From contig NZ_JAAZTS010000007.1 of the NCBI RefSeq assembly GCF_019239235.1, forward strand, positions 62,001 to 126,000: 64,000 bases of DNA, given 5' to 3'. Position 1 is the stretch's first letter, and each line of letters opens with the position of its first letter. Origin of the DNA: Caecibacteroides pullorum (GTDB taxonomy: Bacteria > Bacteroidota > Bacteroidia > Bacteroidales > Bacteroidaceae). Below, one piece after another: positions 39,903-60,872 of this stretch. A model generated the notes under the pieces. It had not been told where the DNA came from. It searched no databases and saw only the letters and a program-made list of their open reading frames with translations. The position numbers and the translations under genes are program-made.

Positions 39903-42335
39903 TTACAGATCTTTTTCCAAGTAGGTGAACGTCGTCTTTCCGATGACGAACTTGGTTCCATGATAAAGTTTCTTCCTGACGTTTGTTTTCAGTGGCTTCT
40001 TATTGAATAGGATGCCCTCTTCCAGTGCTGTCAGGTAAAGGTAGCCGTTGACCATTCTCACTTCGGCCTGTTCGGGTGCGATGGGGCTGGTGATGTCCCA
40101 CGTCATTTGCAGGTCACAGTTGACTGACTTGCCAATCAATATTCTTTTCGATTGTTCAGGTGCTTTCATCCATTTATAGATTGCGATATCCATATCCTTG
40201 ATAGGCCCTTCTACTCGGAGGAAGTATCGTTCGGACTTCGGACACGTGGCCGCTACGCTGATGGCAAATCCGATGCAGTAGATCATGTAGCTCAGGAGCA
40301 GGAATTCACGTGTATCGACCTGGGCGTTGAAGGAGAATGACCACAAGTACATGGACCCCAGTCCGAAAATGATAGAGATGACCGCACCGATCAATGCCTT
40401 CTTTAATTTGATGTCAGTTCCATAGGCCACTGCTGATGCGATGACGAGTCCGCTCAACATCCAGGGAATCCAATCGACGAGGAAGGAATTGTCCTTGAAG
40501 TTCAGTGCTATGGAGATGACACATCCAATGAAAAATGACAGGTAGCTGAAAAGACCTCCAATGAGCGATCGGGCAATGATTTGCAATGTCCTTTTCCATA
40601 GCCAACGGCCATGGCTGGTCAGAAGGCTTAATGAGAAAGTCAGGAAAAAGCCAATGTTCAGACCGTAGAACGGCAGGAACAGAAGGTGGCTGCCGTATTC
40701 TTCTACAAGCGTGGTGATTTGTGGGGAACCTGAATCTACACCAAAAATGAGGTATATGAGTTTTACCAGTAACAAATTCTCGTTGTTATGGACGTTGGCT
40801 GTAAAGTTTATCCAGGCAATAAGGCCTGCAAAGGCTCCGGCGATGATCCACGCGAGGTAAAACGATGCATTGTGTGGGTCAAACAAGTTTCTTGAGTTAT
40901 AGTAGTGCCGTCCTTGTTTGCAATGTCTTCCGTATTCTGGACACTGGTATTCGTTTTCGTCCCAGCAGGATTTGTGAAGTATATGCCGGCATTTTGCAAC
41001 GATTTCGTCACCTTCCACAAAGGGAGCTTTGCAGAAATAGCAGGATTGCTCAATCAACATTCCGTTGTAACTCATGTTCTTACCAGTGTATCGGGTTACG
41101 TATTTTCTCTTGAACAACCAATAGCTGATGGCTGGTAAAATGAATTGGAAAATCAGATAGAGCAAGAGAATGGTTATTATACCAATCAAACAGCCTTGAA
41201 GGATGATTTGAAGCGTTGTTGAGCCATTGATAATGACAGGATTGTAGATACTTCCTACATTGTAGGAAATATAGTCGGAAGCAACCAGGCTGTCGCCTGA
41301 GTAGCAGGTAATCTGAAGCTTGCGTTCCATTCCTCTGTAAATCTTGTAGTCAGGATTTACATAGTTGAAGGTGTAGTCAATATAATTGTTGTTGAACAAA
41401 TGCAGTATGTCGTTCAATTTCAGTTGTTGGTTGGAGGCATTGATGTATTTACCTCCACTTTTATGGCAAAGCGCTGTCAAGAAGTTTTGGGACTCTTCAT
41501 CTGCCTGGCTGGCCAGCATGTCTTGTTTTTCTCCTACGTCGTAGCCTTCGTTCCCTTTTTCCAGGTTGAAATAGAAGATGGGTAATGTTTGGGTTGTATC
41601 TATTTGTTGGATGATTTGGTGTTGCAGTTCGAAGTGTTTGGGGTCAATGGGTTTGTTATGGTTGTAGACCTTTCCGTCAGAGAAGATGAACATGATTTTT
41701 CGTGCGGAGGCAAGAAGGCCTGTCGATGGAGTGTTTTTGACTCTCTCGACATATTCGGAAGAATCCTTTTTGAACTCGTCTATTTTGGAGGAAAGGGCAC
41801 GATAGAGGTATTTTTCTCCTGGCTCACATTTGAAATAGTTGTTCATGACATAATCTGTCGCAATCATGGTTGGAGTCACTTCACCATTTTTCATGAAGGC
41901 TACATGAAGATGATCCAGCGCAAAGAGTTTTGCCAGGTTTTTGATGATCTGATTTTGTTGATTGATCGCAATGGAATCCAATGTCAGGTCAATCAGGAAA
42001 AGTGCGTCTAATTTTAACTCGTTAATTTCTTTCAGTTTAAGGTTTTCATAACTTTCCAGTTGGGGCTGGGTTTTCGGATCGTAGGTATTGTTTTTTAAAA
42101 ATTCTTTTGTTTCGAAATGAATGCTGTCGGCGCTGCTGCTCAGCAACATTGCCGTGAGGGTGTCGTTTATCTCTACGTTCAGATGGAAACGTTTGTGATC
42201 TGGCTCAAATTCTATTTTGGTGATGTTGATGTTCAAATCTTGCTTGGACGCATTGTTGGTGACGTTGAATTGATCGCAGCCCGACAAGGCGAGGAGTGAC
42301 ACTAACAGAAGCGATATGATGTGGCGGCTTTTCAT
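39903..42335 (-). CDS. Polytopic lipoprotein with vWA-like, RING-H2-like and FHA-like parts (T6SS-associated)
   Basis: An 810-residue protein. A lipoprotein signal ('LALSGC', Cys20, with Asp at +2) is followed by a periplasmic region containing a vWA-like fold (about 108-320; 'ALFLIDLTLDS', 'KIMFIFSDGK'). A first membrane helix (about 376-405) leads to a cytoplasmic segment with C432, C435, C449, H451, H454, C457, C465 and C472: the RING-H2 order, with only the last spacing longer (six residues instead of two). Six more helices (about 490-700) bring the C-terminus to the cytoplasm, where residues 725-810 resemble an FHA domain ('RILIGKSVNCDLQM', 'VNGYLYLTALEEGILFNKKPL', 'TKFVIGKTTFTYLE'). Seven helices with the N-terminus outside place both RING and FHA in the cytoplasm. 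As last gene of the Ubl/E1/E2-T6SS operon it is the obvious candidate E3-type adaptor. Domain calls are by eye. Confidence 0.75.
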   Translation of the reverse strand: MKSRHIISLLLVSLLALSGCDQFNVTNNASKQDLNINITKIEFEPDHKRFHLNVEINDTLTAMLLSSSADSIHFETKEFLKNNTYDPKTQPQLESYENLKLKEINELKLDALFLIDLTLDSIAINQQNQIIKNLAKLFALDHLHVAFMKNGEVTPTMIATDYVMNNYFKCEPGEKYLYRALSSKIDEFKKDSSEYVERVKNTPSTGLLASARKIMFIFSDGKVYNHNKPIDPKHFELQHQIIQQIDTTQTLPIFYFNLEKGNEGYDVGEKQDMLASQADEESQNFLTALCHKSGGKYINASNQQLKLNDILHLFNNNYIDYTFNYVNPDYKIYRGMERKLQITCYSGDSLVASDYISYNVGSIYNPVIINGSTTLQIILQGCLIGIITILLLYLIFQFILPAISYWLFKRKYVTRYTGKNMSYNGMLIEQSCYFCKAPFVEGDEIVAKCRHILHKSCWDENEYQCPEYGRHCKQGRHYYNSRNLFDPHNASFYLAWIIAGAFAGLIAWINFTANVHNNENLLLVKLIYLIFGVDSGSPQITTLVEEYGSHLLFLPFYGLNIGFFLTFSLSLLTSHGRWLWKRTLQIIARSLIGGLFSYLSFFIGCVISIALNFKDNSFLVDWIPWMLSGLVIASAVAYGTDIKLKKALIGAVISIIFGLGSMYLWSFSFNAQVDTREFLLLSYMIYCIGFAISVAATCPKSERYFLRVEGPIKDMDIAIYKWMKAPEQSKRILIGKSVNCDLQMTWDITSPIAPEQAEVRMVNGYLYLTALEEGILFNKKPLKTNVRKKLYHGTKFVIGKTTFTYLEKDL

Positions 42336-42366: not shown

Positions 42367-43212
42367 TTAGATAGTCGGATAGTCATTATTGTCTTTGTCC
42401 ATCATTTCACGGAGTTTCTTTGCGTTCTCTCGTGCCTGCTTGAGCGCTTTCAGTTTGGCTTGCAGCATGTTGAGAAACAGTAATATCATAGCTACTGCAG
42501 CCAGGCTATACAAATAGTCTTTTATTCGCTGTAGCCAGGGCTTGTATTCCAAGGCCTGTATTTTATCGGATATGTTTTTCAGTTCGATGTACTTTTCTTC
42601 TATCGGCTGAAAACGGGGAAGGAGGTTCTTGAACTCCTCAGACAGGCTTTTGGCAATGTCATAGTGGCTTTGAATTTCCGCGAACACCAGCTGTTCTTTC
42701 CCTTTCACCTTTTCGAGTTCAGCAGCCAATGCTTTAATCAGTGAATATTCGACTGCTGTCTTATAGAGCTTGGCATAAGCGCTGTCTTGTGCCTGAAAAA
42801 AAACTTCTGCATCTGCAAAATCTTTTTGTGCATCGAAGAAGTGTTTTTGAATGGCAATCGAGTCCAGCAAGTTCTGTTTGGTCAGTTGATAGTCGGCAAC
42901 AATCTGCAGCAGGGAGTCGTCTTCGGCTATTTCGATCTGCCTCGATTGGTAATAGGTATTCCATTTGGCGTCGATGGTTGTCACTTTTTGGCTGGCTTCC
43001 GTAAGCTGCTCGTTCGATGTATATTGTCCAACCCTGGCGGAAATATCTTTGAGTTCCTGATAAAAGCTGAGCATGCGGCTTTCTATTTCCAGCAGATGCA
43101 TTTCGTCAACAAAGCTGTTTGATTCATCCTGCCCCCAGATTTGGGTGCAGGAGAAAACCATTCCGATGCATAGGCAGAACAGTAGCCGTATGTGATGTCT
43201 CAATTCTTTCAT
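42367..43212 (-). CDS. Envelope protein: signal peptide, coiled coil, C-terminal membrane helix
   Basis: A 281-residue protein with an N-terminal signal (cleavage probably near 'IWGQ'), a long helical, coiled-coil-rich periplasmic region (about 35-225) and one membrane helix (about 237-258), followed by a basic 'KLKALKQARENAKKLREMM' cytoplasmic tail. No family recognised. It lies between two other envelope components in the T6SS operon, 5 bp from the gene upstream and 31 bp before the vWA/RING/FHA gene. It could be a periplasm-spanning part of the membrane complex that replaces TssL/TssM; this is inference. Confidence 0.65.
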   Translation of the reverse strand: MKELRHHIRLLFCLCIGMVFSCTQIWGQDESNSFVDEMHLLEIESRMLSFYQELKDISARVGQYTSNEQLTEASQKVTTIDAKWNTYYQSRQIEIAEDDSLLQIVADYQLTKQNLLDSIAIQKHFFDAQKDFADAEVFFQAQDSAYAKLYKTAVEYSLIKALAAELEKVKGKEQLVFAEIQSHYDIAKSLSEEFKNLLPRFQPIEEKYIELKNISDKIQALEYKPWLQRIKDYLYSLAAVAMILLFLNMLQAKLKALKQARENAKKLREMMDKDNNDYPTI

Positions 43213-43217: not shown

Positions 43218-44366
43218 TTATTTCTTTTGGCAGGTTTGGCGGAAATAAGCTTTGGCTTTGTTGAATATGTTGAGGGCTGCCTGCTGGTCGTGGTTGACTT
43301 CTGTCGCTCGTTGCACGTGCGCTTCAATCAGGGTTATAGCTTGTTTGCATGCAGTTTCCAGGTCTTTTTTCTCAATCTCGTCTGAACTCAATAACCATTT
43401 GTTGGTGTTGTTGTCAATTTGTCTGGCTGTTGCCAGAATGTAGTCGGCGCTGAGGTCAAACTTTGTGCTCTGTTTTTCTCTTATAACTTGGAATTTACAT
43501 TGCATCTTTTGGATAGCGTCCACGTAGCTGTTGTAGGCTTCTATGCTCGATTGGATATCTGGGCAGGCGCTTGTTTCTTCCTTTTTGGGGTATTGTTTCA
43601 GTAGGAGCGCTTTCATTTCATTGAATATTCCTTCACTTTCAGGACTCTTCAGGTTGGAGTGCTGGCCGAATTTTTGGTCGAGTGTGGTATATCCCGTTTT
43701 GATGTTCTCGAGCAGGGTTGCTGCAGCCTGTATCTCTTCTTCTTTTCCAAAACAAGGGTCTCTTTTGATAGAAATGTTGTATTTGCGGTTCAAGTCCGTT
43801 TGGAAAAAAAGGTTGTATTTAATTTTCTTTCGACCTGTTTGTTCGCTCATGACGAGTATATCTCTGAGTGTGATAGATACATCGGCCACTTCATGAAGAA
43901 TGTCGAATGTTTGTTCAATGTAGTCGTTCACCATCTTGTATTCGGTCGGCTGTGGTTGAAGTCCCTCATACTCAATCCACTGCTTGAAGATGTGTTTTCT
44001 TTTGGGCTTGATGGACTTTCTCAAGGGTTTCATCATCTTGTATCTTGCCTTTTCATCCGATTCCACCACGTAGGGCAGTCTGTTGGGGCGGAGTTTGCGA
44101 AAGCGGACAGCATGTGAGTAGCGTACGTTATCTTGGAAAACGAACAGTTTCCGATAGGATATCAGGTTGACTGTCAGTTTGTTGCTGGGCTCGTTGAAGC
44201 TGATTTTTACCAGAAGGTCCATGTCGGTTGTTCCCGGTATAAGTGAGATGTGGTCCACGTATGGGGCGTTTCCTGCCACTTCTATTTGCTTGACTGTTTG
44301 TGCTTTCAGGTTACAGCTGAAGCAAAATAGAATGAGAACATATATGACATTATTCAGGAATTTCAT
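43218..44366 (-). CDS. Periplasmic protein of unknown function (T6SS-associated)
   Basis: A 382-residue protein with a signal peptide ('MKFLNNVIYVLILFCFSCNLKAQ'; cleavage after 'KAQ'). The first third is beta-rich ('VKISFNEPSNKLTVNLISYRK'), the rest mainly helical. No family recognised and no further membrane helix. A -7-like TATTTTTG lies upstream on the minus strand (44390-44397), so it may also have its own promoter. Context suggests a periplasmic subunit of the secretion machine. Confidence 0.65.
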   Translation of the reverse strand: MKFLNNVIYVLILFCFSCNLKAQTVKQIEVAGNAPYVDHISLIPGTTDMDLLVKISFNEPSNKLTVNLISYRKLFVFQDNVRYSHAVRFRKLRPNRLPYVVESDEKARYKMMKPLRKSIKPKRKHIFKQWIEYEGLQPQPTEYKMVNDYIEQTFDILHEVADVSITLRDILVMSEQTGRKKIKYNLFFQTDLNRKYNISIKRDPCFGKEEEIQAAATLLENIKTGYTTLDQKFGQHSNLKSPESEGIFNEMKALLLKQYPKKEETSACPDIQSSIEAYNSYVDAIQKMQCKFQVIREKQSTKFDLSADYILATARQIDNNTNKWLLSSDEIEKKDLETACKQAITLIEAHVQRATEVNHDQQAALNIFNKAKAYFRQTCQKK

Positions 44367-44431: not shown

Positions 44432-45040
44432 TTATTTTAAAGCGGGTTGCTGATCGAAATAAACCCATCCTTGAGGCTCTCCTTGTTTGACTACCCATTC
44501 TGCCACTTTCAAGTCTTCCGGATAGGGAGGTTCTTGAATGGCGTGATAACGGTCGTAAGTCAGATAGTGTCCAATACGCTCTACGCACCAGGCCAGGCTG
44601 GAGTAAGTGTCAGGGCTATTCAGGCATACCCTTCCCGCAAAGTCTCCGAAATATCGGATGTTGGGATGCCATGGATGAGGGATTGCTTGGCCTTCTTTAT
44701 CGTAAGTCAGGAAATAAAATTCGGCAGGTGCATCCACGCAAGGGTAATTCTCGGGCAGGTAGATACGCATGCGAAAGGTTGAAGCGAAAATAGGCTTGTT
44801 GGCTATGCCTGGCTCGTTCAATCGTTCAAGTTGTTCTACATTGCAAATGGAGCGGATATGATAGGTTATCAGATACATTGTGGGCAGGCCTTGTTCATTA
44901 CGTCTGATAATTTGATACTCCATTTCGTTTCGTTGTTCAAGGGCACGATCCAGTTGGCTCCATTCATGGAGCAGTCTCCGATTTCTTCCATTCAATTGTT
45001 GAGAAGAGTACTCTTGCCAATTCGTGGGATATGTTCGCAT
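44432..45040 (-). CDS. E2-like ubiquitin-conjugating (UBC-fold) protein
   Basis: A 202-residue protein with the UBC fold signature in order: 'FRMRIYLPENYPCVDAPAEFYF' (90-110, the FxxxxPxxYP beta-strand region), the 'HPN' motif at 125-127, and the expected catalytic cysteine C139 in 'GRVCLNS' 12 residues after the HPN, followed by 'SLAWCVERIGHYL'. In eukaryotic E2 enzymes HPN and Cys occur at the same distance. Helical extensions at both ends are specific to this protein. It would accept the Ubl from the E1-like protein encoded at 49621. It is 28 bp downstream of the Ubl gene. Confidence 0.85.
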   Translation of the reverse strand: MRTYPTNWQEYSSQQLNGRNRRLLHEWSQLDRALEQRNEMEYQIIRRNEQGLPTMYLITYHIRSICNVEQLERLNEPGIANKPIFASTFRMRIYLPENYPCVDAPAEFYFLTYDKEGQAIPHPWHPNIRYFGDFAGRVCLNSPDTYSSLAWCVERIGHYLTYDRYHAIQEPPYPEDLKVAEWVVKQGEPQGWVYFDQQPALK

Positions 45041-45068
45041 GCTGAATTCTGTTAGGGTGTATGACTCT

Positions 45069-45386
45069 TTATCCGGGGAAGGGGTCAGGAATTAGAAAAA
45101 CGGTATCTCCATTGTTGACGTTGTAATCTGCCAACGTCTGGTCTGTTTTTCCAATCCTGGGTCTGAGTACGCGTGTTTCGTGAGTCGCGGTGTCCTCTTT
45201 CCCGAAGAAATAGTCTAAAGGAGCCCCTGTCGGGTCTATCGATGGAAAATCGAAGATAAGCCGTCCGTCTTTCCCGATGGCATGACGCAGATTGTTCATC
45301 AGGGTACTCAGGGGAGCCTGTGGGTTCATGATGCGGAACCTTACTTTTTTGTCTTTATATACGATGTCTAAAAAGAAATCTTCCAT
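45069..45386 (-). CDS. Ubiquitin-like (YukD/beta-grasp type) protein
   Basis: A 105-residue protein with a beta-grasp pattern: strand pair 'FFLDIVYKDKKVRFRIMNP', helix 'PLSTLMNNLRHAIG', strands 'RLIFDFPS' and 'RVLRPRIG', and 'TLADYNVNNGDTVFLIPDPF' as the last strands ('tL.dy.v..Gdtv.li' is standard in Ubl proteins). It ends in Pro-Gly, so the C-terminal glycine needed for adenylation is exposed without processing. An insertion of about 20 residues mid-domain ('PTGAPLDYFFGKEDTATHE') is unusual. A -7-like TATTTTTG upstream (minus strand 45409-45416) may give separate expression. Confidence 0.8.
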   Translation of the reverse strand: MEDFFLDIVYKDKKVRFRIMNPQAPLSTLMNNLRHAIGKDGRLIFDFPSIDPTGAPLDYFFGKEDTATHETRVLRPRIGKTDQTLADYNVNNGDTVFLIPDPFPG

Positions 45387-45408
45387 TGTTACGTCTTTGT
45401 TTGGATTG

Positions 45409-45416
45409 CAAAAATA
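45409..45416 (-). promoter_or_regulatory. Possible internal promoter before Ubl gene
   Basis: TATTTTTG on the minus strand fits the -7 consensus in the 85-bp gap between the TssF and Ubl genes, the largest gap in the operon; a TTG is 16 bp upstream, shorter than ideal. Confidence 0.3.
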
Positions 45417-45471
45417 ATAAATTAAGAGTTCTCAATAGCTCTGTTTGTCGGACGTTTTTCCAATCGCCTTC

Positions 45472-47169
45472 CTAACTGATCTCGATACTGACTTGAACCG
45501 GCAGGATGTTGGTGCTTCTTACTTCAATCATTTTTTGCAACAACATTTCGGTCATTGGTATTTTCTCCTGAAAGTTTCGTTTGATGTAGGGATCGTTTTT
45601 CAGGGATATGTAAACCTGAGTCTCCAAGCCGCAATGGTAGCGTTCCGTGTGGCGGTTGTTTCTGACTCTTATGCTTGTTATCATATCGTTTGTGATGCCA
45701 AAGCGGGTACCCAGTTCGTTATAACATAAGATTTTGATATCTGCAGGTGTCACAATTCGATCGTTGGTGGTCAGGTAGTAGCGCGTGAGTAGGTTTTCGG
45801 CGTCCATGTTCTGCACTTCGTCAAAGCCGGGCATAGGTTCGGCAACCAGCTTGACATCTGTAAAGTAGCCGTTTGCCAGGATATTGAACCGGCTTCTGTT
45901 GTTCAGCAAGCTGTTGACAGCGCTACCGTTAGTGACCAGATAGTCTATGTGGAGACTTTTGTCTTTGGGACGGAAACCGTTGTCGTTCTTGAGCATCAGA
46001 TAGAGGGTCGGCGTATAAATGTTCGGAGTCTTGGCCAATCCTTCCGACATTTTTTTCAGCAGAGAGTAGAAGCTGTCCATGAAGTTTCCTTCTCGAAGGG
46101 AGTCGATACCCTGAAAGGCATAATAATCGGAGGAAAAGCGGTTGATAAGCGTAGTGGCCAATTTGACCAGATGCTCAGGATTGAAACGGCTGGCTGTCAT
46201 TTTACGGATTTCAATGGGTTCCTCTTTGAACATTTGCGTATCTGCAGGTCGGAGCAGGTGCAGGAATTGCCAGTATGTGGAAAAGTCGCTTGCACCGTTT
46301 AGGCGCGTGATGGGAGAACTGGACGAAAGGTTGGCAGATGCTATGGAGGCATTGGCCAGGATAGTACAGTTCAGCGACAACAGTTCCTTGTCGAACAGGA
46401 ACTGGTCGTCAATGCCAAAGAATTCGAAAACCAGTTCCAGTCTTTCGTTTGATAGGGATGTGGCCGACGGGGTTTTGTAAGTATCTATTGCAAACAGTCG
46501 TACGTTTTGTCTCGCAAATAAATCAAACCAGATGTGGCGTGGCTGGAAAATGGGCGATTCGTTGTAGAGCAGGTTTTCCAGCGAGAAGCATCTGTCCAGG
46601 GGCAAATCGGCGTAATCCCACGGCTTGATGAGCGGAAGCGGGTGGCCGTTGGCAAAAACCTTCAGATCTTGGAAATGAGGGGTGCCGATTAGGAAGGTCA
46701 TGCCAGACAGGTTGTTGACCGGTTCTTTGAATTGCAGGCCCACTTTCCAGCGGCGGTTGTCTATACGGACTATCGAGGATATCTTGCAGTTGAATACCCG
46801 TGTGCTGAGAAGTGGAATAAATGTGAACGGTGTGTCCTGAAGGGAGAAGACCGTTCGATGGTCCAGTGTCTGGATTGAGATACTTTCACTGGGTGTCACT
46901 TCTACGGCAGCTGTTGCCGGGAGTGCGTGAGTCCGTTCGTAGGGGACGAGCATCTGTTCCAGCTCATAAAGGATTTCGGCCTTGAGCTGTTCGATTTCGT
47001 TGTCGATTTCGTTAGCCTGATAGGCCAGCGCTGTCAGAAACAGGGAGAAAACCGGATCTTGCTCAATGCCTTCCAGGTGTTCGCTGTTGGTGCTTTGTTC
47101 CCAAACGGCAATGGCTTCTTTGATGATTTCTTTTGCCCTTTGGCGTGTATTGAATATCGTCTGTTTCAT
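45472..47169 (-). CDS. tssF: T6SS baseplate protein TssF
   Basis: A 565-residue protein with the TssF plan: an N-terminal helical segment 'DPVFSLFLTALAYQANEIDNEIEQLKAEILYELEQMLVPYE', then 'PATAAVEVTPSES' and a beta-rich body with 'FGIDDQFLFDKELLSLNCTILANA'. TssF is the largest wedge component of the T6SS baseplate (two copies per TssG). Length is at the short end of the family, as in Bacteroidetes systems. It lies 44 bp after the TssE-like gene. Confidence 0.82.
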   Translation of the reverse strand: MKQTIFNTRQRAKEIIKEAIAVWEQSTNSEHLEGIEQDPVFSLFLTALAYQANEIDNEIEQLKAEILYELEQMLVPYERTHALPATAAVEVTPSESISIQTLDHRTVFSLQDTPFTFIPLLSTRVFNCKISSIVRIDNRRWKVGLQFKEPVNNLSGMTFLIGTPHFQDLKVFANGHPLPLIKPWDYADLPLDRCFSLENLLYNESPIFQPRHIWFDLFARQNVRLFAIDTYKTPSATSLSNERLELVFEFFGIDDQFLFDKELLSLNCTILANASIASANLSSSSPITRLNGASDFSTYWQFLHLLRPADTQMFKEEPIEIRKMTASRFNPEHLVKLATTLINRFSSDYYAFQGIDSLREGNFMDSFYSLLKKMSEGLAKTPNIYTPTLYLMLKNDNGFRPKDKSLHIDYLVTNGSAVNSLLNNRSRFNILANGYFTDVKLVAEPMPGFDEVQNMDAENLLTRYYLTTNDRIVTPADIKILCYNELGTRFGITNDMITSIRVRNNRHTERYHCGLETQVYISLKNDPYIKRNFQEKIPMTEMLLQKMIEVRSTNILPVQVSIEIS

Positions 47170-47213
47170 TTCTGTCTCATTTAAGTTATGGTCAGGACGT
47201 TTCTTGAAGGAAG

Positions 47214-47660
47214 TCAGTTCCAGAGGTTGATGCTGGTTGTGTACTTGTAGGGTTCATTGGTCTCCATAAGTATGCCTTCAACGACGATTTGAATCATTTT
47301 TTGGTTTTTAAGGTATGTCATGGAAACGGAAACTTCAGTCAGCCTTTTCTCGTATTGTTCGATAGCTTTTTTCAGGTCTACCGCAAATGTATTGAGGTTT
47401 TTGGAGTTTCCCGAAACCTTCTTGTCGTAAAGTTTCGAGTTTGAGTTGTCCTGTGGCAATGAGTCATAAATGACCCCTTCCTTTTCGTTGAATATCTCGA
47501 ATTTCAGGTTGTTGAATATAAATCCGAATTCAGGATCTGCCCCACAGCCTCCACACGGTGTGCTCAGCAGCAGTTCGATGAACGCGTCGATGGCCATTTG
47601 CGACTTGGAAGCGTAGGCCAGACGTCCGTTTGTTACTTGCAAAGGTAGTAAAACGTTCAT
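47214..47660 (-). CDS. tssE: T6SS baseplate protein TssE (gp25-like)
   Basis: A 148-residue gp25-like protein: 'AIDAFIELLLSTPCGGCGADPEFGFIFNNLKFEIF' corresponds to the family segment where the 'I...L.T..GeR...P.fG' motif normally lies, followed by helical 'AVDLKKAIEQYEKRLTEV' and strands 'SVSMTYLKN..MIQIVVEGIL'. It would nucleate the sheath on the baseplate. The segment contains a C-G-G-C pair where GER-type residues are common, an odd feature. It is 9 bp from the TssK stop. Confidence 0.78.
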   Translation of the reverse strand: MNVLLPLQVTNGRLAYASKSQMAIDAFIELLLSTPCGGCGADPEFGFIFNNLKFEIFNEKEGVIYDSLPQDNSNSKLYDKKVSGNSKNLNTFAVDLKKAIEQYEKRLTEVSVSMTYLKNQKMIQIVVEGILMETNEPYKYTTSINLWN

Positions 47661-47669
47661 GACATACTT

Positions 47670-48809
47670 TTAAATTAATGGTGTGAATTCATCCTCTTCT
47701 TTTTCTACTGGGACATATAGAGCATTGTACAGGCTTTCATACAGATTCTTGTACAGGCTTTCGTACAGTTCTTCCGACAATTCTCCCGACAACAGGTCAT
47801 GTAGTTCGGTCTTGAGTTGTTGGTTGATGTAGTCGGTCAGGCGGACAGTCAGGTCTTCGGAAATCTCGGCATAGAGTTTGGCCTTAAGTTCAGTGTAAAG
47901 TTGTTCGTACAGTTCAGGGCGCAATTGTTCGTACAATTCTGCCTTGATTTGTGCTTTCAACTCGTCAAAGTCGATGGTGTGGTCTTCCAGGACTACTTTG
48001 TCGAGGGTGCCTGCCGCGTTATGCAGATAGCTGTCCAACCAGTCCAGCCAGTTTGCGATGTCATATCCCGAATAAGCCGGTATGGTTACAGGTGTCTCGG
48101 TGTTTGGCGTAACGATATAGTAGTCTATGGCTTGGGCTATTTCGTAGGTCAGTTGGATGAAAGGGCATGTCCTGCCTTGAGTATCATAACTCTTTAACAG
48201 ATAGGCATAGCGTTGGAAAGCACGTTTCCCTTCTCCAGACTCCAGATTCGGATGTTCGGCCAGTAAGCTGACTTGCTTTGTGAGTTGCTCCAAATACGGT
48301 TGGAAGCGGTTGTTAGACGATAGATATAGACAAGGAGGAATGTAAGATTCGTCGATGGAAAAGATACCGTCGCTGACTTTGAATTTCATGACCGGGAAAA
48401 GGTCTGTCCCTTCCAGTTCGCTCAGGGAATAGATGCCGTATGTGTATTCCGGCCGTACAAAGGGTACCTCCTTTACGTCGAATTCCACTTCCTTTTCGCC
48501 GAAACCGCAGGCCAGGTAGTATTCGTTGCCATACACCAGCGGGACGGTCACTACAACCTTTTCGTCGATGTGCAGAATTTTTCCGGAGGGGAGTAGAGCC
48601 ATACAAGCCAGGTGGTCTATTTCCAGTTTGTTGCGGACGAAACCGCCTTGCCTGTCGAATTCGGTGAAAGGTATGAGGCCGAATTCATTTCCGTTGACGG
48701 CTCGGGTTGCCGCTTGTTGTCTGTGGCGCAGGTTCTCGTCCAGTTCTAGAAAAGTTTGGGCGGAGATTGCCATGCCGGCTTTCCAGTCTATTCTTGAGTT
48801 GATATTCAT
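47670..48809 (-). CDS. tssK: T6SS baseplate protein TssK with repeat-rich C-terminus
   Basis: A 379-residue TssK-like protein. 'INSRIDWKAGMAISAQTFLELDENLRHRQ' matches the start of TssK ('W..Gm.l.pqhf...d'). The beta-sandwich shell domain runs to about 160, and the helical middle domain to about 280. Residues 283-366 are an amphipathic series of related units ('ELYEQL', 'ELKAKLY', 'ELYESLY', 'NLYESLY', 'NALY') instead of the usual membrane-complex-binding domain. The start overlaps the TssG stop by 4 bp (ATGA), so translation is coupled. Confidence 0.8.
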   Translation of the reverse strand: MNINSRIDWKAGMAISAQTFLELDENLRHRQQAATRAVNGNEFGLIPFTEFDRQGGFVRNKLEIDHLACMALLPSGKILHIDEKVVVTVPLVYGNEYYLACGFGEKEVEFDVKEVPFVRPEYTYGIYSLSELEGTDLFPVMKFKVSDGIFSIDESYIPPCLYLSSNNRFQPYLEQLTKQVSLLAEHPNLESGEGKRAFQRYAYLLKSYDTQGRTCPFIQLTYEIAQAIDYYIVTPNTETPVTIPAYSGYDIANWLDWLDSYLHNAAGTLDKVVLEDHTIDFDELKAQIKAELYEQLRPELYEQLYTELKAKLYAEISEDLTVRLTDYINQQLKTELHDLLSGELSEELYESLYKNLYESLYNALYVPVEKEEDEFTPLI

Positions 48810-49624
48810 AATAGGTTCCTGTTAGTGTCAATATGCTGGGTTGATGTCTCGGTATTGTAGTCCAGTGTCAGGGCGTTACCCAGGGCAAAGGGGCGCTCAT
48901 GATGTTTGATGGCAATGGTGCAATGCGTGTCGAAGGGAATGAACCATTCGCGAATAAAGTCGGCAAACGGATCTACGGTCGCTTTTAGCTTGTTGTATGC
49001 TTCTGTTGTCAGGTTTGGGACAATCAGATGGAAGGTGATGGCGGGTTGTGAATAGCCGATGCCTTCGTCCCACGTATATCGGCCGGTCGTCATCTCTACA
49101 GGGCAGTCGAACAGGCTTTTCAGCAGGGTTCGCAAGAAACCGAAATCAGCGCGCAGGTGGCTGATGAGGAGAAGCAGCGGGGCTGTTTTTCGGATGTATG
49201 GATTTTCTTCTTTCTCCAGGTCGTAGCCGAAATAGTGTTTGAGCAGCAGGGCCAGTTTCCCGCCCGACAGTTGTGAGGTTTCTTTCTCAATGTGGAGGCG
49301 GAATCTGAAGTTCAGGGTGTCTACAGGCTTGAAGAGATCTTTCAGAAGTTCCTCTTTCTTTTTGAGTTGTTCGTATTTCTGTTCGAAACCTTTTCCTTTC
49401 AGGGCATTGTCGGGAGCGATAACTCCTTGGGGGAGTAACCGCAGAAAACCGTCGCGAGCCAGGCGTACCGTCCGTTTGTCCTCTTCGAACGACAGGATAT
49501 CCGGGCTGTAGTTCCGATAGAATGCGCCGGCGCATTCCGCTTGCCACTGGTCTGTGTGGTCAGGGAAGAGGTAATTCAAGAGGAATTCCGCACTGATGTC
49601 AAATGGTTTTGTCTCGTTCATCAT
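48806..49624 (-). CDS. tssG: T6SS baseplate protein TssG
   Basis: About 272 residues. Family-like segments are 'SQLSGGKLALLLKHYFGYD' and 'FDCPVEMTTGRYTWDEGIGYSQPAITFHLIVPNLTTEAYNKL' plus the C-terminal 'REWFIPFDTHCTIAIKHHERPF', matching the Bacteroidetes type of TssG. The start is set at 49624, where ATGATG overlaps the stop of the E1-like gene (ATGA); the frame is open another 33 codons upstream inside that gene. The coupled start ties baseplate and E1 expression together. Confidence 0.75.
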   Translation of the reverse strand: MMNETKPFDISAEFLLNYLFPDHTDQWQAECAGAFYRNYSPDILSFEEDKRTVRLARDGFLRLLPQGVIAPDNALKGKGFEQKYEQLKKKEELLKDLFKPVDTLNFRFRLHIEKETSQLSGGKLALLLKHYFGYDLEKEENPYIRKTAPLLLLISHLRADFGFLRTLLKSLFDCPVEMTTGRYTWDEGIGYSQPAITFHLIVPNLTTEAYNKLKATVDPFADFIREWFIPFDTHCTIAIKHHERPFALGNALTLDYNTETSTQHIDTNRNLL

Positions 49625-50853
49625 GCCTGTCTGTTTTGATATAAGAAGGTTGAGTAATTTCGTTCGTCGGCCAGCTCTACGTAGCGGCTGCCGTTTTCTG
49701 TCCGCACATGCAGGACGCTCCACGGCGGAATGCCGATCTGTGACAGAGTCAGATCCCGATAGGGAAAATCCCTGTCGACAGTTTTTATCTCATGTTGGTA
49801 GAGGGCGTGGAAAGGAAGCTGGCGTAGGGTGGGCTCTTCTTCCAGAAAACGGGCGATGGCATAGTCGGGAAGCAGGGCGGCTACTTTTCGCTCGTCTTTC
49901 CGTACGGTCAGGTAGTCCACGAAGCTGTGGTCTCTGAGTACGATTTCCACGTCCCGGCATCCCAATTGCCCAGCCAGGCTGTCCAGTGTCTCACCAATCG
50001 GCCTGTCCGTCGTGAGGTTTACTTTTTCTATCGGTTCCCATCGGTCGTGCACGGGGCATTCTTCGTCGTAACCCGTAAAGTCTGCGATACGTGCGGCCAG
50101 GTGTTGACCTTCGTAATAGAACATCTTTCCGCATAGCGAGGTCAGTTCTCCGCTGGCCAGTTCATCGGGGTGTAGCAGTTTGATGGCTTCCTGTGCTTCT
50201 ACGGCACCGATGACGGAAGCGATTACTGGCGTGGTCGGTACACGGTTCGCCTGTTCATTTCGTCGGATGGCCGCACTGCATGACAGGCGGTACGACATGT
50301 CCTTCAGCGCTTCAGGCCCCAGATTGCAGGCGTAGCAATTCTTGCCAGGTACGAACACCCGCGCTGTGCCTTCCAGTCCGTCTATGCCGCCGTCTACCCA
50401 AGGCACACCGGCACGCATGCACAGGCGGTTCAGGCAATAGCGCGCCCAGCGGTTGTCCACGCAGCCCACGACGACATCCATCCGTCGTAGCAGGCCCAGC
50501 CCGACATCGTGGCAGATGTCGCTCTCGAGTGGCAGCACTTGAATGGATGGATTGATTTCGCGGATGCGCTTTGCTGCTACGGTCGCTTTGGGGCGACGGG
50601 CTTCGGCGTCTGCCCGACTGAAGAGGATGGAGCGGGTCAGGTTCGATGGTTCGATGGTGTCGAAGTCCACAACGACCATGTGACCGACACCGAATAAAGC
50701 CAAGTTCTTCAGCACCTCGTTGCCAAGGGCACCGCAACCCACTACCATCACATTGGCTCGGTCCAGCCGCTCCTGCTTGAACCAGGAGAACAGCGGGAAC
50801 ACGTCCGCGCCCCATGTGGGAGCTAAGGTCGGTATCGGGTCATTTTCTTTCAT
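49621..50853 (-). CDS. E1-like (ThiF/MoeB/UBA-type) activating enzyme with C-terminal extension
   Basis: A 410-residue protein. The adenylation domain has 'VMVVGCGALGNEVLKNLALFGVG' (nucleotide loop, 36-57), 'VVVDFDTIEPSNLTRSILF' (61-78), 'KATVAAKRIREINP' and 'GCVDNRWARYCLNRLC'. Further motifs are 'CYAC' (173-176, likely zinc ligands), candidate thiol C192 in 'LSCSAAI', and 'PTTPVIASVIGAVEAQEAIKLLH' (206-228), typical of E1 proteins. Residues 275-400 form a separate domain with beta-grasp-like features ('LTLSQIGIPPWSVLHVRTENGSRYVEL'), perhaps for binding E2 or Ubl. It is first in the operon and overlaps TssG by 4 bp. Confidence 0.85.
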   Translation of the reverse strand: MKENDPIPTLAPTWGADVFPLFSWFKQERLDRANVMVVGCGALGNEVLKNLALFGVGHMVVVDFDTIEPSNLTRSILFSRADAEARRPKATVAAKRIREINPSIQVLPLESDICHDVGLGLLRRMDVVVGCVDNRWARYCLNRLCMRAGVPWVDGGIDGLEGTARVFVPGKNCYACNLGPEALKDMSYRLSCSAAIRRNEQANRVPTTPVIASVIGAVEAQEAIKLLHPDELASGELTSLCGKMFYYEGQHLAARIADFTGYDEECPVHDRWEPIEKVNLTTDRPIGETLDSLAGQLGCRDVEIVLRDHSFVDYLTVRKDERKVAALLPDYAIARFLEEEPTLRQLPFHALYQHEIKTVDRDFPYRDLTLSQIGIPPWSVLHVRTENGSRYVELADERNYSTFLYQNRQA

Positions 50854-51424: not shown

Positions 51425-51451
51425 CAAGGTATGATTTCAGAAACAGTACGC

Positions 51452-53566: not shown

Positions 53567-53956
53567 TTATTTCCCCTGCGAGTCGCACGTATGGCCGGGC
53601 ATGTTGATGGAGATGCTGCCGCCATAGGCACACATCAGCTTGCAGTTGTCCAGCAGGGCCGGCATGTTGGTGATCAGTTGCTTGCCGCCCGGTGCCCAGG
53701 GAGCCACGATTACCGGAATGCAGGGCATGGGCGTCAGGACGCCCATTGCGGCCGAGGTGGCGGAGGCCACCATGGGGTTGCTCAGCGACTGGCACATGCC
53801 GAAGGGCAGAATATTAACCAGTGGAGCGAAATCCATGATGGTGGCTTTCGGCTTGTTCTGGATCATCGGCCGCAGAGGGACCGTTACCATTAATGAAGAA
53901 GGGGTCATACCAAACGTGCATTTCAGCATTGCGCCCATACAAACATATTTTGCCAT
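53567..53956 (-). CDS. PAAR-like protein, DUF4280 family
   Basis: A 129-residue Gly/Pro/Met-rich protein: 'MAKYVCMGAMLKCTFG', 'KPKATIMDFAPLVNILPFGMCQSLSNPMVASATSAAMGVLTPMPCIPV' and 'PWAPG...NMPALLDNCKLMCAYGGSISINMPGH'. These are hallmark segments of DUF4280, a PAAR-like spike-tip family found with contractile injection systems. Conserved cysteines (6, 13 and others) and the terminal His may bind a metal at the tip. It is the last gene of the ClpV-VgrG operon, 13 bp after the spike companion. Confidence 0.85.
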   Translation of the reverse strand: MAKYVCMGAMLKCTFGMTPSSLMVTVPLRPMIQNKPKATIMDFAPLVNILPFGMCQSLSNPMVASATSAAMGVLTPMPCIPVIVAPWAPGGKQLITNMPALLDNCKLMCAYGGSISINMPGHTCDSQGK

Positions 53957-55794: not shown

Positions 55795-58700
55795 TTATAT
55801 GTTTCTTAGGAAATCTATTATTTGCTGCATTTTGTTTGCTAAAGTATACTCGTTTATTGTATTATTGTCAAGAAAAAGTGTTTGATCTTCTTTCCTTGAG
55901 AATAATATATCTCCTCCACTTGCGTGATCCCAATTGTATTGGTCGTAAAAACCATTGAGCCCCCAAGCTTTTACAAACCTTCTCTTTAAACCGGTGGTTA
56001 AGGGAACATCGAGCTCTACTTGTTGTTGACTATTAGTTATAGTGATACCTTGTATAGCAGCATTCCAATTGGCGTCGTCGTAACCAGCTATTTGTGCTGG
56101 TAGGTTGACAGTAATACCATATGGATTATTGCCATTGAGATTATTTATAAATTGTCGGATCACACTTCTGAGTTCAATTTTATTAATTGTGGCATTAGCA
56201 TTGAAATTCGAATTGTATGCGTTCTGTGCATTTAGAAAATAAACTTCTTCGCAAAGGGTACTAATATTGCCGTCTAGAGCGTAGAGCGCAGTTTTACAGG
56301 GATCGCTAAGCGACTTGCTAAGTGATTCTTTGACATTATTCCATACGGATTTTCTTACTGATTTATAGAGTCCTTTTGCCATATCGTTTATATGCATTGC
56401 AATAGAAAAAAGATTTAGGAAATCCTTTGTCCCTCTATTTTGAACTTTTAATGGCTGATATTCTTGATTGGCAACAAAATTTCCAAGGAGTGTATCACTA
56501 TCGTCGGGATCGCGGCTTAACCCACCAGGTTGTTGTAGTATGGCGTATGGCCTACAACGTTGATTATATTTATCAATCATTGTTCCAATTGCTATAGTAT
56601 TTGCTTTACATGTGTTAAATAAATCAATAATAAATTGATGAGCAGCAACAATGTCGCCAAAGAAAGATGCAGTTTCTTTGTGCTTAACTCCACCGGTCCA
56701 TAATGCCGTCCTACGTAATTGTAAGTTTCTTCCAGGGATTTTTGCTTCTCCCTTACCTGCTTCGATGCATAAATATCTGTTGGACTTGATGAGCATCGTG
56801 CCACCGATAGGACGAATTAGAGTTTCCATAAAAGTGCGTATAAGGCCCATATCAATGGGTTGTATTTTCTTGAGCACATTAACCGCGGTGTCTTTTAAAC
56901 TTTCTTTTAAAAGCTGAACAGAGGTTGGCCAAAAGTGGGATACGATATTGTTTCCGGAAGAAATGGAAAGGTTGTTACCCGCCACGATATCAATGTTCTT
57001 TCCCTCGATACGGACATTCCCGTTGGGCGCACTGATGGTGATACCTGTAAAGGCGCTGATATTTACTTTGCCCAAAGGGCTGTCGATGGAGATGGCACGT
57101 TTGTCCGATGACATGGATATGGAGTACAGTCCGTGTTCGTCGGTAAACTCGATGCCTCCCATCGCTTTCTTGAAAGAATCTGGGAAAATATCCACTTTAT
57201 GGTCACGTAAACTAAGTTCTGTTTTGATAAAACCGGTTGGGCAGAAACTTTTAATGGTACTCATCAATGGGGACAATGAATTTAAAGCGTCTGAACTGGC
57301 TGATGGGTCGGAGAAAATGATAGAATGACCGTTTACGGACGAAATGACACGAGCTTTGTCCCGTTTGAAAGCGTATGGAACCGTTGATTCGTCTTCTTTT
57401 GCGGCTCTTGTATAGAGCATACCTTCTACGTAAGGCTTCTCAATATTTCCGTTCTCGTAGTTGATAATGGCTTCGTCGCCTATCTGGGGAAGGAAGTTGA
57501 AGCCGCTGCCGTCCGAAGCCATGGGCAGGGCAATGCGGATCCATGGTGTAGGGTCTTCCGTTTGGCCTTGCCACGGATAGCGTACCCTTACACGGTTCAT
57601 TTTCAAGGGATCCGTATTGTGCGTGATGAAGGCTCGTTGGGCTTTGGCCTCTCGGATGGGGCCGACAGGAGCGGCAGGGGGGAATACGAACTCATTCTCT
57701 TTGTATGGGATGGCTTCGATGTCGAAGGTCTCTGCACCGCTGTTGGCGCAGCCGTTCATCTGGACAACGATATATTGTTCTCCGTCCAGCTCTATCAGGC
57801 TGCCCAGCGTGAGGGGGTAGAAATGGTCGCCCAATGCAATTTGGATACGTGACCGTTCGTTCGCTTCTATTCCTTTGCGGACGGCTTCATAAAATTCCAG
57901 GCTGAAGGTGACGTAACTGTCCAAAGCATTTTTAACGCTCTCTGATGTACTGAACGGATGGATGCGGTCACCGTTTTTTCTGTCGTCTGTATAGATTCCC
58001 TTTTTAAAATTTTTGTCTTCATAGTCGTCATTGGTCGCTTTGGCAGATAAACTACAATTCAGTATGGTTATTCCCGTATCAGAGATTAAGTTTACTGCTG
58101 CTTCAATCATATCGGCCGAATTAACGATGTCGGTAACAGCGTTGATAAAAAAATATCCTGGCCACAGGGCAAAATCTTGCCATTTGGTGTATTCATCTTT
58201 GGGAGGAAGGGAAACCAGGTTCTCATCTGAAGCCAGTTGGGAATCCTGAAGCTGTATATTTTCATTGTCTTGCAGTTCCGAAGGGAAACGTTTCACTTTA
58301 TTTTCCCTGAGGGAATAATTATGATGGCTGCTTACGATATAGTTTTCTTTCCATGCAGTAGCTGTTTCATCAGAAAAATTGACGGAAACATACTCCGTAA
58401 TGGGGGTTATGTCATCTTGTTCTTTATCATCCTTATCTTTTTTAGTCTTTTTTTCCCACCCGATATTGAAATATCCGTCCTCGTAATAGAGAAATTCTCC
58501 GCATCGGTTGCTGACTCTGACCAGAAAATCGAAGAAACTTTCGTTGTATTGCACGAGGTAGGGCTGGATAAATTCTTTATCATTATAGTATAGATAGCGA
58601 GGATTTTTGTTAAATTGAGATTTTGTCCCATCATTGATAATAGAGTTTAATTTCTTTATTTCGCTATCAAGTTCTTGTATTCTTATACTTATATTTTGAG

Positions 58701-59376
58701 ACAATGCCTCCTTTTCATTAAGCGTCTTTTGCAGTTTCTCTTTTGTGTTTTCGTTTGTCTCTTTGTTTATCTTATCGTTGAGGTCGTTTATTTCTTTATT
58801 AATTTCCTTTTGTTTTTCCTCGAGGTTTGCCTTCTCTGCTTCCCGTTCCTTCTTCAAACTTTGAGCATTCTCTATTGTCAGTTGTTCATCTATTGTTTCA
58901 GGAAGGTTATTGGGCCAAAGATCTTTGTTCAAAAAAATGTCTTGAGTGAATTTTTTACCTGTATAGGCTTTGCAATACGTATCCAGTGTAAGGAACTTAA
59001 ACGGGTCGTAGGCTTGGAACGTAGCATAATAAACGTTCCCTTTTTTCTCGATTTGTATCCCGAAAATATAATAGTCTTTTGCAATGCTGCTACTCTTGTT
59101 ATCAGCTTGGGCTGTTAATTCGATTTTTTTTCCTTTGAATGTGCTGCAAATAGCATTGACACCGCTACATCCTGTAATTTGCAACTTGAAGATAAGTTCT
59201 CCCGGCTTGTAAATAGCTTTCGAGTAGCTCAAATCTTGGAGCGTGCAAATCCATGTTCTATTTTCTGTATGAATAGTACATGTGGACTTTTCTCCGTTTG
59301 AGTTGTAGCTTATGCTAATGTATTTCTTGTTTATGATTTGTGGAATATCGTAGATTGTTAAAGTATAGGAAGCCAT
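55795..59376 (-). CDS. tssI: T6SS spike protein VgrG (TssI), large, with coiled-coil insertion and C-terminal extension
   Basis: A 1193-residue VgrG. The gp27-like part starts at residue 1 but is interrupted at about 170-250 by a Glu/Lys/Asn-rich coiled coil ('KKEREAEKANLEEKQKEINK...'). The gp5-like OB fold (about 575-665) shows the family signature 'NRVRVRYPWQGQ', 'PWIRIALPMAS', 'FLPQIGDEAIINYENGNIEKPYVEGMLY'. A short beta-helix ('GNVRIEGKNIDIVAGNNLSISSG', about 790) is followed by about 380 residues of unknown function, probably a cargo or docking domain. The coiled-coil-coding DNA is markedly AT-rich. Most VgrG proteins in Bacteroidetes are near 600 residues. Confidence 0.9.
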   Translation of the reverse strand: MASYTLTIYDIPQIINKKYISISYNSNGEKSTCTIHTENRTWICTLQDLSYSKAIYKPGELIFKLQITGCSGVNAICSTFKGKKIELTAQADNKSSSIAKDYYIFGIQIEKKGNVYYATFQAYDPFKFLTLDTYCKAYTGKKFTQDIFLNKDLWPNNLPETIDEQLTIENAQSLKKEREAEKANLEEKQKEINKEINDLNDKINKETNENTKEKLQKTLNEKEALSQNISIRIQELDSEIKKLNSIINDGTKSQFNKNPRYLYYNDKEFIQPYLVQYNESFFDFLVRVSNRCGEFLYYEDGYFNIGWEKKTKKDKDDKEQDDITPITEYVSVNFSDETATAWKENYIVSSHHNYSLRENKVKRFPSELQDNENIQLQDSQLASDENLVSLPPKDEYTKWQDFALWPGYFFINAVTDIVNSADMIEAAVNLISDTGITILNCSLSAKATNDDYEDKNFKKGIYTDDRKNGDRIHPFSTSESVKNALDSYVTFSLEFYEAVRKGIEANERSRIQIALGDHFYPLTLGSLIELDGEQYIVVQMNGCANSGAETFDIEAIPYKENEFVFPPAAPVGPIREAKAQRAFITHNTDPLKMNRVRVRYPWQGQTEDPTPWIRIALPMASDGSGFNFLPQIGDEAIINYENGNIEKPYVEGMLYTRAAKEDESTVPYAFKRDKARVISSVNGHSIIFSDPSASSDALNSLSPLMSTIKSFCPTGFIKTELSLRDHKVDIFPDSFKKAMGGIEFTDEHGLYSISMSSDKRAISIDSPLGKVNISAFTGITISAPNGNVRIEGKNIDIVAGNNLSISSGNNIVSHFWPTSVQLLKESLKDTAVNVLKKIQPIDMGLIRTFMETLIRPIGGTMLIKSNRYLCIEAGKGEAKIPGRNLQLRRTALWTGGVKHKETASFFGDIVAAHQFIIDLFNTCKANTIAIGTMIDKYNQRCRPYAILQQPGGLSRDPDDSDTLLGNFVANQEYQPLKVQNRGTKDFLNLFSIAMHINDMAKGLYKSVRKSVWNNVKESLSKSLSDPCKTALYALDGNISTLCEEVYFLNAQNAYNSNFNANATINKIELRSVIRQFINNLNGNNPYGITVNLPAQIAGYDDANWNAAIQGITITNSQQQVELDVPLTTGLKRRFVKAWGLNGFYDQYNWDHASGGDILFSRKEDQTLFLDNNTINEYTLANKMQQIIDFLRNI

Positions 59377-59904: not shown

Positions 59905-59930
59905 AGAAGGTCTTAATTTGAGGGTTTGCT

Positions 59931-60338: not shown

Positions 60339-60375
60339 AACGGGATGTTTATTACTTTGTGTCTTTTAACTTTAT

Positions 60376-60400: not shown

Positions 60401-60434
60401 GTGATAAGGTGCCGGCGGATGGCGGCTATAAGCT

Positions 60435-60833: not shown

Positions 60834-60872
60834 AGTGTTTCTGTTTTTTTAGTTTGACATCATGTTCTGAAC

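What the first reader, a model, noticed from the sequence alone, without database searches (positions are those of the whole stretch)
44432..50853. Ubiquitin-like conjugation set (Ubl, E2, E1) inside a T6SS baseplate operon
One minus-strand operon encodes an E1-like enzyme, TssG, TssK, TssE, TssF, a beta-grasp Ubl and an E2-like protein in unbroken order with 4-bp overlaps at E1/TssG and TssG/TssK. Seen directly: E1 adenylation loop, candidate E1 thiol C192, E2 HPN with C139 twelve residues later, and a Ubl ending in Gly. Established: prokaryotic E1-E2-Ubl neighbourhoods exist, including in defence and in other secretion contexts, but I know of none embedded in a T6SS operon. Inference: protein conjugation acts on a T6SS part, an effector or an assembly step.
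Basis: partly seen in the sequence, partly recalled or inferred. Interest (0 to 1): 0.93.

Follow-up and report, generated by a model that had tools for sequence, protein, structure and literature searches.

The report
Secretion weapon with own ubiquitin system
Some gut and rumen bacteria carry a gene cluster for a needle-like protein-injection machine that also encodes a small ubiquitin-like protein, matching activating and conjugating enzymes and a membrane protein with a RING-type zinc finger, which together are predicted to tag proteins and likely act on a part of the machine itself.

Summary
It is a candidate membrane-bound E3.

It is no chance insertion. All 72 related loci found are titled Bacteroidota; 58 carry all ten genes in the same order, and the catalytic residues of E1 and E2 are invariant. 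A rearranged sister branch adds a membrane-anchored JAMM-protease gene, so writer and eraser genes coexist there.

Of 30 T6SS (TssC) loci in two genome samples, 12 are in TssN genomes, 12 go with this E2, 6 have neither. One genome holds both kinds, on separate contigs. The window genome lacks detectable TssN, TssO and TssR, the Bacteroidota membrane-complex genes I tested.

Conjugation and its target are untested. I favour Ubl attachment to a cytoplasmic component at the baseplate-membrane junction. My searches of the held library found no description of it; one relevant 2011 paper was not held.

The parts
49621..50853 (-). E1-like adenylating enzyme, 410 aa; C192 candidate thiol; C173/C176/C266/H269 candidate zinc ligands
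   Evidence: PF00899 2.8e-52; profile best in PDB to UBA7 4.3e-37, then UBA6/UBA1/SAE2, MoeB 9.9e-29, ThiF 9.7e-27; C192 in 68 of 68
48806..49624 (-). TssG-like baseplate protein, 272 aa
   Evidence: no Pfam or PDB match; window-class profile hits the ORF next to TssN in 3 of 6 TssN-type loci, 31-57 bits
47670..48809 (-). TssK-like baseplate protein, 379 aa
   Evidence: NCBIfam TIGR03353 2.6e-14, VasE 4.9e-4
47214..47660 (-). TssE (gp25-like), 148 aa
   Evidence: PF04965 8.4e-8; K81 invariant 65 of 65
45472..47169 (-). TssF-like baseplate protein, 565 aa
   Evidence: PF05947 0.059; window-class profile hits an ORF in 6 of 6 TssN-type loci, best 45-84 bits
45069..45386 (-). ubiquitin-like protein, 105 aa, ends in Gly with no tail to remove
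   Evidence: Rad60-SLD 8.1e-4; AF2 pLDDT 89.2, beta-grasp order of elements; Foldseek to Ub-like folds; 72 of 73 end in Gly
44432..45040 (-). E2 (UBC-like), 202 aa, HPN 125-127, C139
   Evidence: UQ_con 0.0025, 37 of 41 relatives, PDB UBE2K 4.3e-5; HPN and C139 73 of 73
43218..44366 (-). orf382, secreted/periplasmic by its N-terminus (inference), unknown
   Evidence: no good Pfam match; found in 64 of 72 loci
42367..43212 (-). orf281, N-terminal signal/TM, C-terminal TM, unknown; fused to the RING protein in 3 loci
   Evidence: TM scan; L017, L022, L038 single ORF
39903..42335 (-). 810-aa candidate membrane RING E3: lipobox C20, VWA about 106-316, TM 382-400, RING-type C432-x2-C435-x13-C449-x-H451-x2-H454-x2-C457-x7-C465-x6-C472, six further TM, FHA 702-810
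53567..53956 (-). PAAR-like DUF4280
   Evidence: PF14107 5.3e-32
55795..59376 (-). VgrG/TssI spike, 1193 aa
   Evidence: PF04717 5.8e-18
59395..61265 (-). four Hcp/TssD-like genes
   Evidence: PF17642 2.4e-30, 8.9e-24, 2.5e-10, 0.0017 (the last below cut-off)
61308..62678 (-). TssC
   Evidence: PF17541 2.5e-105
62699..63163 (-). TssB-like
   Evidence: PF05591 0.02; position before TssC
63218..64000 (-). ClpV/TssH, C-terminal part; the gene continues beyond the window, 816 aa in all
   Evidence: PF07724 6.5e-57; L074 218-2668

Best explanation
This T6SS gene cluster encodes an E1, an E2, a ubiquitin-like protein and a membrane protein with a RING-type finger, which are predicted to attach the Ubl covalently to a cytoplasmic component of the T6SS, likely at the baseplate-membrane junction. 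Predicted steps: the E1 adenylates the exposed C-terminal Gly of the Ubl and takes it onto C192; it passes to E2 C139; the RING domain of the 810-aa protein, placed on the cytoplasmic side of the inner membrane next to a phospho-reading FHA domain and tethered to the periplasm by its VWA domain, recruits the charged E2 and directs transfer to a lysine of a baseplate or membrane-complex protein. The tag would help dock or license the baseplate for firing. In the window's branch there is no maturation or eraser protease in the cluster; in the sister branch a membrane-anchored JAMM enzyme would remove the tag. Shown: the genes, their co-inheritance, invariant catalytic and metal-ligand residues, the predicted Ubl fold, the separation from TssN. 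Inferred: activity, E3 role, substrate, purpose.
For: Gene set integral to the cluster: 58 of 72 loci with all ten genes in order; pairwise distances of the ten proteins correlate at 0.66-0.95 over 56 loci, 0 of 999 permutations as high in each of five tests (this shows common inheritance, not interaction). Active-site residues: E2 HPN and C139 73 of 73, E1 C192 68 of 68, Ubl last residue Gly in 72 of 73 (L071 ends GGR), RING ligands 72 of 72 for seven, 70 of 72 for the eighth. Ubl is the most conserved of the ten, mean pairwise identity 0.79 against 0.38-0.60. Topology: positive-inside counts put RING and FHA in the cytoplasm with E1 and E2. JAMM motif HxHP/E-x6-S-xx-D after a TM helix in 8 of 8 rearranged loci and 4 of 4 sister genomes looked at (L080, L086, L091, L092), 0 of 64 main-order loci. 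T6SS tie: E2 in 4 of 8 TssC-positive against 1 of 239 TssC-negative genomes (order) and 9 of 22 against 0 of 279 (family). TssN, TssO, TssR not detected in E2-type genomes (TssO and TssR 0 of 6).
Against: No activity was tested. The RING-type finger has x6, not x2, between its last two ligands, its Pfam scores are below cut-off, and no RING fold was among the listed fold matches. The E1 C-terminal domain and the E2 were not folded. Target lysines are not clear: the invariant ones are few (TssE K81 65 of 65, RING protein K713 and K721 72 of 72, TssK K195 62 of 63). Kinase/FHA-type T6SS loci manage without both TssN and the Ubl set, so the set is not needed by every TssN-less T6SS. The same set also occurs once without TssC, beside SrfB/SrfC-type genes (G016), so its job need not be T6SS-specific. 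Profile comparison of the Ubl or the RING protein with TssN gave nothing significant.
Confidence: 0.5

Rival explanations
1. The Ubl is attached to cargo or to the tube and spike (Hcp, VgrG, effectors) as a loading or sorting tag rather than to the baseplate.
For: Four Hcp-like genes, a 1193-aa VgrG and a PAAR-like gene in the same cluster; in sister loci Ubl and E2 come directly after VgrG/PAAR; in L070's genome E1 sits between PAAR and VgrG.
Against: In the main branch Ubl and E2 are fixed between TssF and the envelope genes, and the RING finger is in the membrane protein, not in a cargo protein.
Confidence: 0.15
2. The cascade is quality control: spent or misassembled T6SS parts are Ubl-marked at the membrane for extraction or degradation.
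For: Membrane RING next to a ClpV-bearing cluster; by analogy with membrane RING E3s such as synoviolin, a weak PDB match (E 2.1; the quality-control role is recalled).
Against: No protease, proteasome-like or Ubl-receptor gene was recognised in the cluster.
Confidence: 0.13
3. The parts are a non-covalent scaffold: the Ubl docks the baseplate as the built-in Ub-like domain of TssN is proposed to do, and the enzymes are vestigial.
For: TssN was reported to have an EccD-like topology with a Ub-like cytoplasmic domain and to bind TssK (PMC10781749, passages); the Ubl model has TM-score 0.66 to the EccD5 Ub-like domain, the highest query-normalised value among the 50 rows listed.
Against: Invariant E1 and E2 catalytic residues and terminal Gly; JAMM residues kept in sister loci.
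Confidence: 0.1
4. It is an anti-phage Ubl module (Bil/Bub-like) that happens to sit in the T6SS cluster.
For: Bil attaches a Ubl to a phage central tail fibre (PMC11364771, one passage), and a T6SS is tail-like; E1 matches PADLOC E1-E2 models at 1.8e-17.
Against: No PADLOC match for Ubl or E2 at E up to 1; BilB uses a CEHH motif (PMC11354881, passages) while this E2 has HPN; E2 was absent from 239+279 TssC-negative genomes except one.
Confidence: 0.07
5. Chance insertion or annotation artefact.
For: None found.
Against: 72 loci, conserved order, co-inheritance.
Confidence: 0.01

Closest known systems
T6SS type iii of Bacteroidota (TssBCDEFGHIK + membrane complex TssNQOPR)
   Same: Core genes: TssC, TssD, TssE, TssI, TssK, ClpV by family match, TssB/F/G by weak match, profile or position; Bacteroidota only so far.
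   Different: TssN, TssO and TssR not detected in the window genome, whereas PMC10781749 (section 11 read) reports the membrane complex or part of it in all 443 systems found, with tssN nearly ubiquitous; E1, E2, Ubl and RING genes in the cluster instead.
BilABCD / Bub antiviral Ubl conjugation systems
   Same: E1, E2, Ubl in one operon; JAMM enzyme in the sister loci.
   Different: Single Ubl domain here, two in BilA; HPN in the E2, CEHH in BilB (PMC11354881 passages); RING-type membrane protein; T6SS neighbourhood. PDB BubCD matches the E1 only at 4.9e-9 against 8.3e-30 for UBA7.
Prokaryotic E1-E2-JAB-Ubl operons of types 6a-6d
   Same: Same enzyme classes.
   Different: 6d E2-like proteins lack the conserved His of classical E2s (PMC1779556 passages); no T6SS neighbourhood in the passages seen. 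The later paper that defined Prok-RING families (recalled) was not held.
Type VII secretion YukD / EccD Ub-like domains
   Same: A Ub-like fold inside a secretion machine; 17 of 41 Ubls match YukD at E up to 0.1; fold match to EccD5.
   Different: No E1/E2/RING set is associated in what I saw (PMC1779556 passages); EccD's domain is fused to its membrane protein, this Ubl is free with a terminal Gly.
SrfABC-type locus with the same Ubl set (G016)
   Same: E1, Ubl, E2, JAMM protein and the VWA-RING-FHA-type protein on one strand.
   Different: SrfB and Virul_Fac genes in place of the T6SS genes; no TssC match in that genome.

Membership tests
T6SS (contractile core) | sheath TssBC, tube TssD, spike TssI, ClpV, baseplate TssE/F/G/K | tested here: met
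   TssB 0.02, TssF 0.059 and TssG (no family match) are weak on their own
T6SS type iii | membrane-complex protein TssN | tested here: not met
   no PF17555 match in G000, while 12 TssC-bearing genomes of the two samples have one over the cut-off
T6SS type iii | membrane-complex proteins TssO and TssR | tested here: not met
   0 of 6 E2-type genomes; TssO 4 of 4 and TssR 3 of 4 TssN-type controls
T6SS type iii | TssP and TssQ | not tested
   no accession at hand; operon proteins had no such Pfam match at E up to 1
E1-E2-Ubl conjugation system | E1 adenylation domain with catalytic Cys | tested here: met
   C192 68 of 68. That C192 is the thiol is inferred from invariance and position
E1-E2-Ubl conjugation system | UBC-fold E2 with active-site Cys | tested here: met
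   by sequence profile, no structure predicted
E1-E2-Ubl conjugation system | beta-grasp Ubl with C-terminal Gly | tested here: met
E1-E2-Ubl conjugation system | covalent conjugates on target proteins | not testable with these tools
   needs biochemistry
RING E3 | eight metal ligands in cross-brace order, last pair C-x2-C | tested here: inconclusive
   C3H2C3 ligands invariant but last spacing x6; a review states that prokaryotic RINGs have a longer insertion there (PMC11354881 passage); no RING row in the fold listings
Bil system | two-domain ISG15-like Ubl, E2 CEHH motif, JAMM BilC | tested here: not met
   single 105-aa Ubl domain; HPN E2; no JAMM motif in the window or 64 main-order loci

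The most novel reading that the evidence does not exclude
A separate T6SS lineage that replaced the membrane protein with a built-in ubiquitin-like baseplate dock (TssN) by a free ubiquitin-like protein welded onto the machine by its own E1, E2 and membrane RING ligase: a bacterial nanomachine whose assembly is licensed by ubiquitin-type conjugation, with a JAMM eraser in the sister branch.
Probability: 0.2. Interest if true: 0.97.

Novelty: new variant of a known kind. Interest (0 to 1): 0.9.

Why it matters
If true, ubiquitin-type conjugation with an HPN E2 and a membrane RING protein serves the building of a bacterial machine, not only defence. It would define a T6SS class that current Bacteroidota models, which rest on TssN-TssR, would miss, in common gut and rumen genera (Bacteroides, Alistipes, Parabacteroides, Prevotella). 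It also gives a small, genetically approachable E1-E2-RING-JAMM pathway with a natural comparison between branches with and without the eraser, and bears on where eukaryotic ubiquitin signalling came from.

Tried and rejected
Chance insertion: rejected by 72 loci and co-inheritance. Missing E1 in L061 and L070: rejected, both genomes hold a close E1 elsewhere (474.7 and 459.5 bits), L070's in the other half of its T6SS cluster, L061's on a contig without T6SS genes in the 8 kb held. orf281 as a JAMM protein that lost its protease domain (same place before the RING gene): no detectable relation by hhalign. Ubl or RING protein as relatives of TssN, or RING protein/orf382 as relatives of TssR: no significant hhalign match, although TssR is also reported to carry a vWA domain. 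RING fold by structure search: VWA and FHA fill the lists and no RING row appears; absence there proves nothing. A first JAMM scan used a wrong spacing and found 0 loci; repeated with the right spacing. Its match in L075 (HAHPVACESSASSHD) I set aside as spurious because it has a different spacing and does not lie beside the Ubl set. TssN matches under the cut-off (4 genomes in the order set, 6 in the family set, one of them the E2-type genome G490 at 24.6 bits in a 698-aa frame) were not counted as TssN. G239, G285 and G342, among the six TssC loci with neither marker, lie on contigs of 5-11 kb, so their type is unknown. A deubiquitinase elsewhere in the window genome was not searched for. Literature: searches are search listings; of PMC10781749 I read section 11 and passages, of PMC4714493, PMC1779556, PMC11354881 and PMC11364771 passages only; the Hor et al. 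2024 Bil paper I know only through the passage in PMC11364771. The 2011 paper on prokaryotic RING fingers (recalled) is not held, so prior notice there cannot be excluded.
Full report
Observation. E1, TssK and TssE have clear family matches; E2 and Ubl weak single-sequence ones that firm up with relatives: UQ_con 37 of 41, Rad60-SLD 32 of 41, YukD 17 of 41, ubiquitin 17 of 41, all at E up to 0.1. The E2 profile matches UBE2K at 4.3e-5. The E1 profile is nearer to the adenylation domains of UBA7 (4.3e-37) and other eukaryotic E1s than to MoeB or ThiF (9.9e-29, 9.7e-27) in the PDB. The PDB profile match of the Ubl is not worth quoting: its top E-values come from many weak copies in polyubiquitin. 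The AF2 model of the Ubl (41 sequences, pLDDT 89.2) has the beta-beta-alpha-beta-beta-beta order of a beta-grasp, and Foldseek lists talin FERM, SUMO, engineered ubiquitins, a bacterial Ubl, Caldiarchaeum ubiquitin and EccD5 at E 5.7e-4 to about 5e-3.

Conservation. A scan of genome contigs with the E2 gave 72 loci (L002-L073), all with Bacteroidota titles: Mediterranea, Bacteroides, Alistipes, Millionella, Parabacteroides, Prevotella/Xylanibacter, Paludibacteraceae and unnamed relatives, and one Sphingobacteriia. The scan looks for short peptides of this E2, so more distant E2s are under-sampled. All ten genes stand in the same order and strand in 58 of 72. Of the other 14, four are cut by ends, two lack E1 beside TssG, and eight have the order Ubl-E2-...-RING-E1-TssG-TssK as far as the DNA reaches. 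L073's Ubl was picked by eye (it ends in IPG) because BLAST missed it. Over 56 loci with all ten genes unfused, protein distances correlate at 0.66-0.95, and 0 of 999 permutations reached the observed value in each of five pairs tested. The Ubl is the most conserved of the ten (0.79 against 0.38-0.60). In three loci orf281 and the RING protein are one ORF.

The eraser. In all eight rearranged loci, and in the four sister genomes examined (L080, L086, L091, L092), a protein encoded in the cluster has a TM helix followed by the JAMM motif; JAB Pfam matches are weak (0.0013 to 0.034 in five of six T6SS-linked JAMM proteins scanned, none in L072), clear in G016 (1.7e-8). An upstream Glu-bearing segment and the HxHP/E-x6-S-xx-D motif are kept in 13 of 13 aligned. 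The motif is absent from the 64 main-order loci and from the window. So the window's branch has no recognised eraser in the cluster, and its Ubl needs no trimming.

Which T6SS. In 247 genomes of the order, TssC occurs in 8, this E2 in 5, TssN over its cut-off in 3; E2 and TssN do not share a genome. In 301 of the family, TssC occurs in 22 (23 loci), E2 in 9, TssN over cut-off in 9. Taking both samples, 30 TssC loci: 12 belong to TssN genomes, 12 to E2 genomes, 6 to neither. G468 holds both kinds, with its E2 on the contig of one TssC (C23) and its other TssC and TssN on other contigs. TssC scores separate the kinds: 737-770 bits with TssN, 316-353 for the window's kind, 418-441 and one 568 for sister kinds, which include five of the six 'neither' loci (G239, the sixth, scores 744 and is probably a fragmentary TssN type). 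Three of the 'neither' loci (G440, G258, G412) could be read well: none of the Ubl set at E up to 1e-3; the G440 ones tested carry protein-kinase and FHA domains, and G258 and G412 have look-alike ORFs that I did not scan. Sister Ubl-type loci G357, G366 and G490 were read; a kinase domain was confirmed in G357. E2 without TssC occurs in one genome, G016, where the same set stands beside SrfB and Virul_Fac genes. TssO and TssR are undetected in 6 of 6 E2-type genomes and present in 4 of 4 and 3 of 4 TssN-type ones. PMC10781749 (section 11) holds that the TssN-R membrane complex, or part of it, is found in all Bacteroidota T6SSs its models detected; the window's class falls outside that by TssN, TssO and TssR. 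TssP and TssQ were not tested.

Mechanism. The chemistry is inferred from residues, the target from context. For the baseplate-membrane junction: gene order (E1-TssG-TssK-TssE-TssF-Ubl-E2-envelope genes), a RING finger in the inner-membrane protein, absence of TssN, and the report that TssN has a Ub-like cytoplasmic domain and binds TssK (PMC10781749 passages). The bold form is that a conjugated Ubl took over the dock of TssN. Against it: no detectable sequence relation, T6SS loci that lack both, and the SrfB-linked copy. The FHA domain and the kinase in a sister locus suggest, without proof, phosphorylation upstream of the ligase.

Novelty. Searches for the combination found no paper describing it; preprints and most subscription papers are not in that library, and the recalled 2011 RING paper was not held. 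I rate it a new variant of two known kinds, T6SS and bacterial Ubl conjugation, rather than categorically new.

Noticed in passing
L076-L079, L083 (G440, G258, G412): T6SS loci of the same family with neither TssN nor the Ubl set; in G440 protein-kinase, FHA and FHA-trypsin proteins flank the core. A possible third class.
   Followed up: partly
L090 1548-18543 and L101 (G016): E1, Ubl, E2, JAMM protein and RING protein beside SrfB and Virul_Fac genes, and a second JAMM motif in a 284-aa ORF of L101: the same Ubl set apparently used by another system.
   Followed up: partly
window 51371-53534, + strand: Two + strand genes between the PAAR-like gene and E1, opposite to the operon; look-alikes stand in the same place in G468. 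Unknown.
   Followed up: no
L061 and L070: E1 moved away from the baseplate half, and in the same two loci the last RING ligand Cys is replaced by Asn.
   Followed up: partly
L017, L022, L038: orf281 and the RING protein form one ORF, suggesting they work together.
   Followed up: no
window 53970-55760: 596-aa protein without Pfam match between VgrG and the PAAR-like gene, conserved in many loci; possibly a spike extension.
   Followed up: no
L073 8955-9413: 152-aa protein with a ZFAND1-like Ub-like domain match (1.4e-4) directly before the Ubl.
   Followed up: no
L072 9986-11114: Two E2 genes in a row (43% and 44% identical to the window's E2).
   Followed up: no
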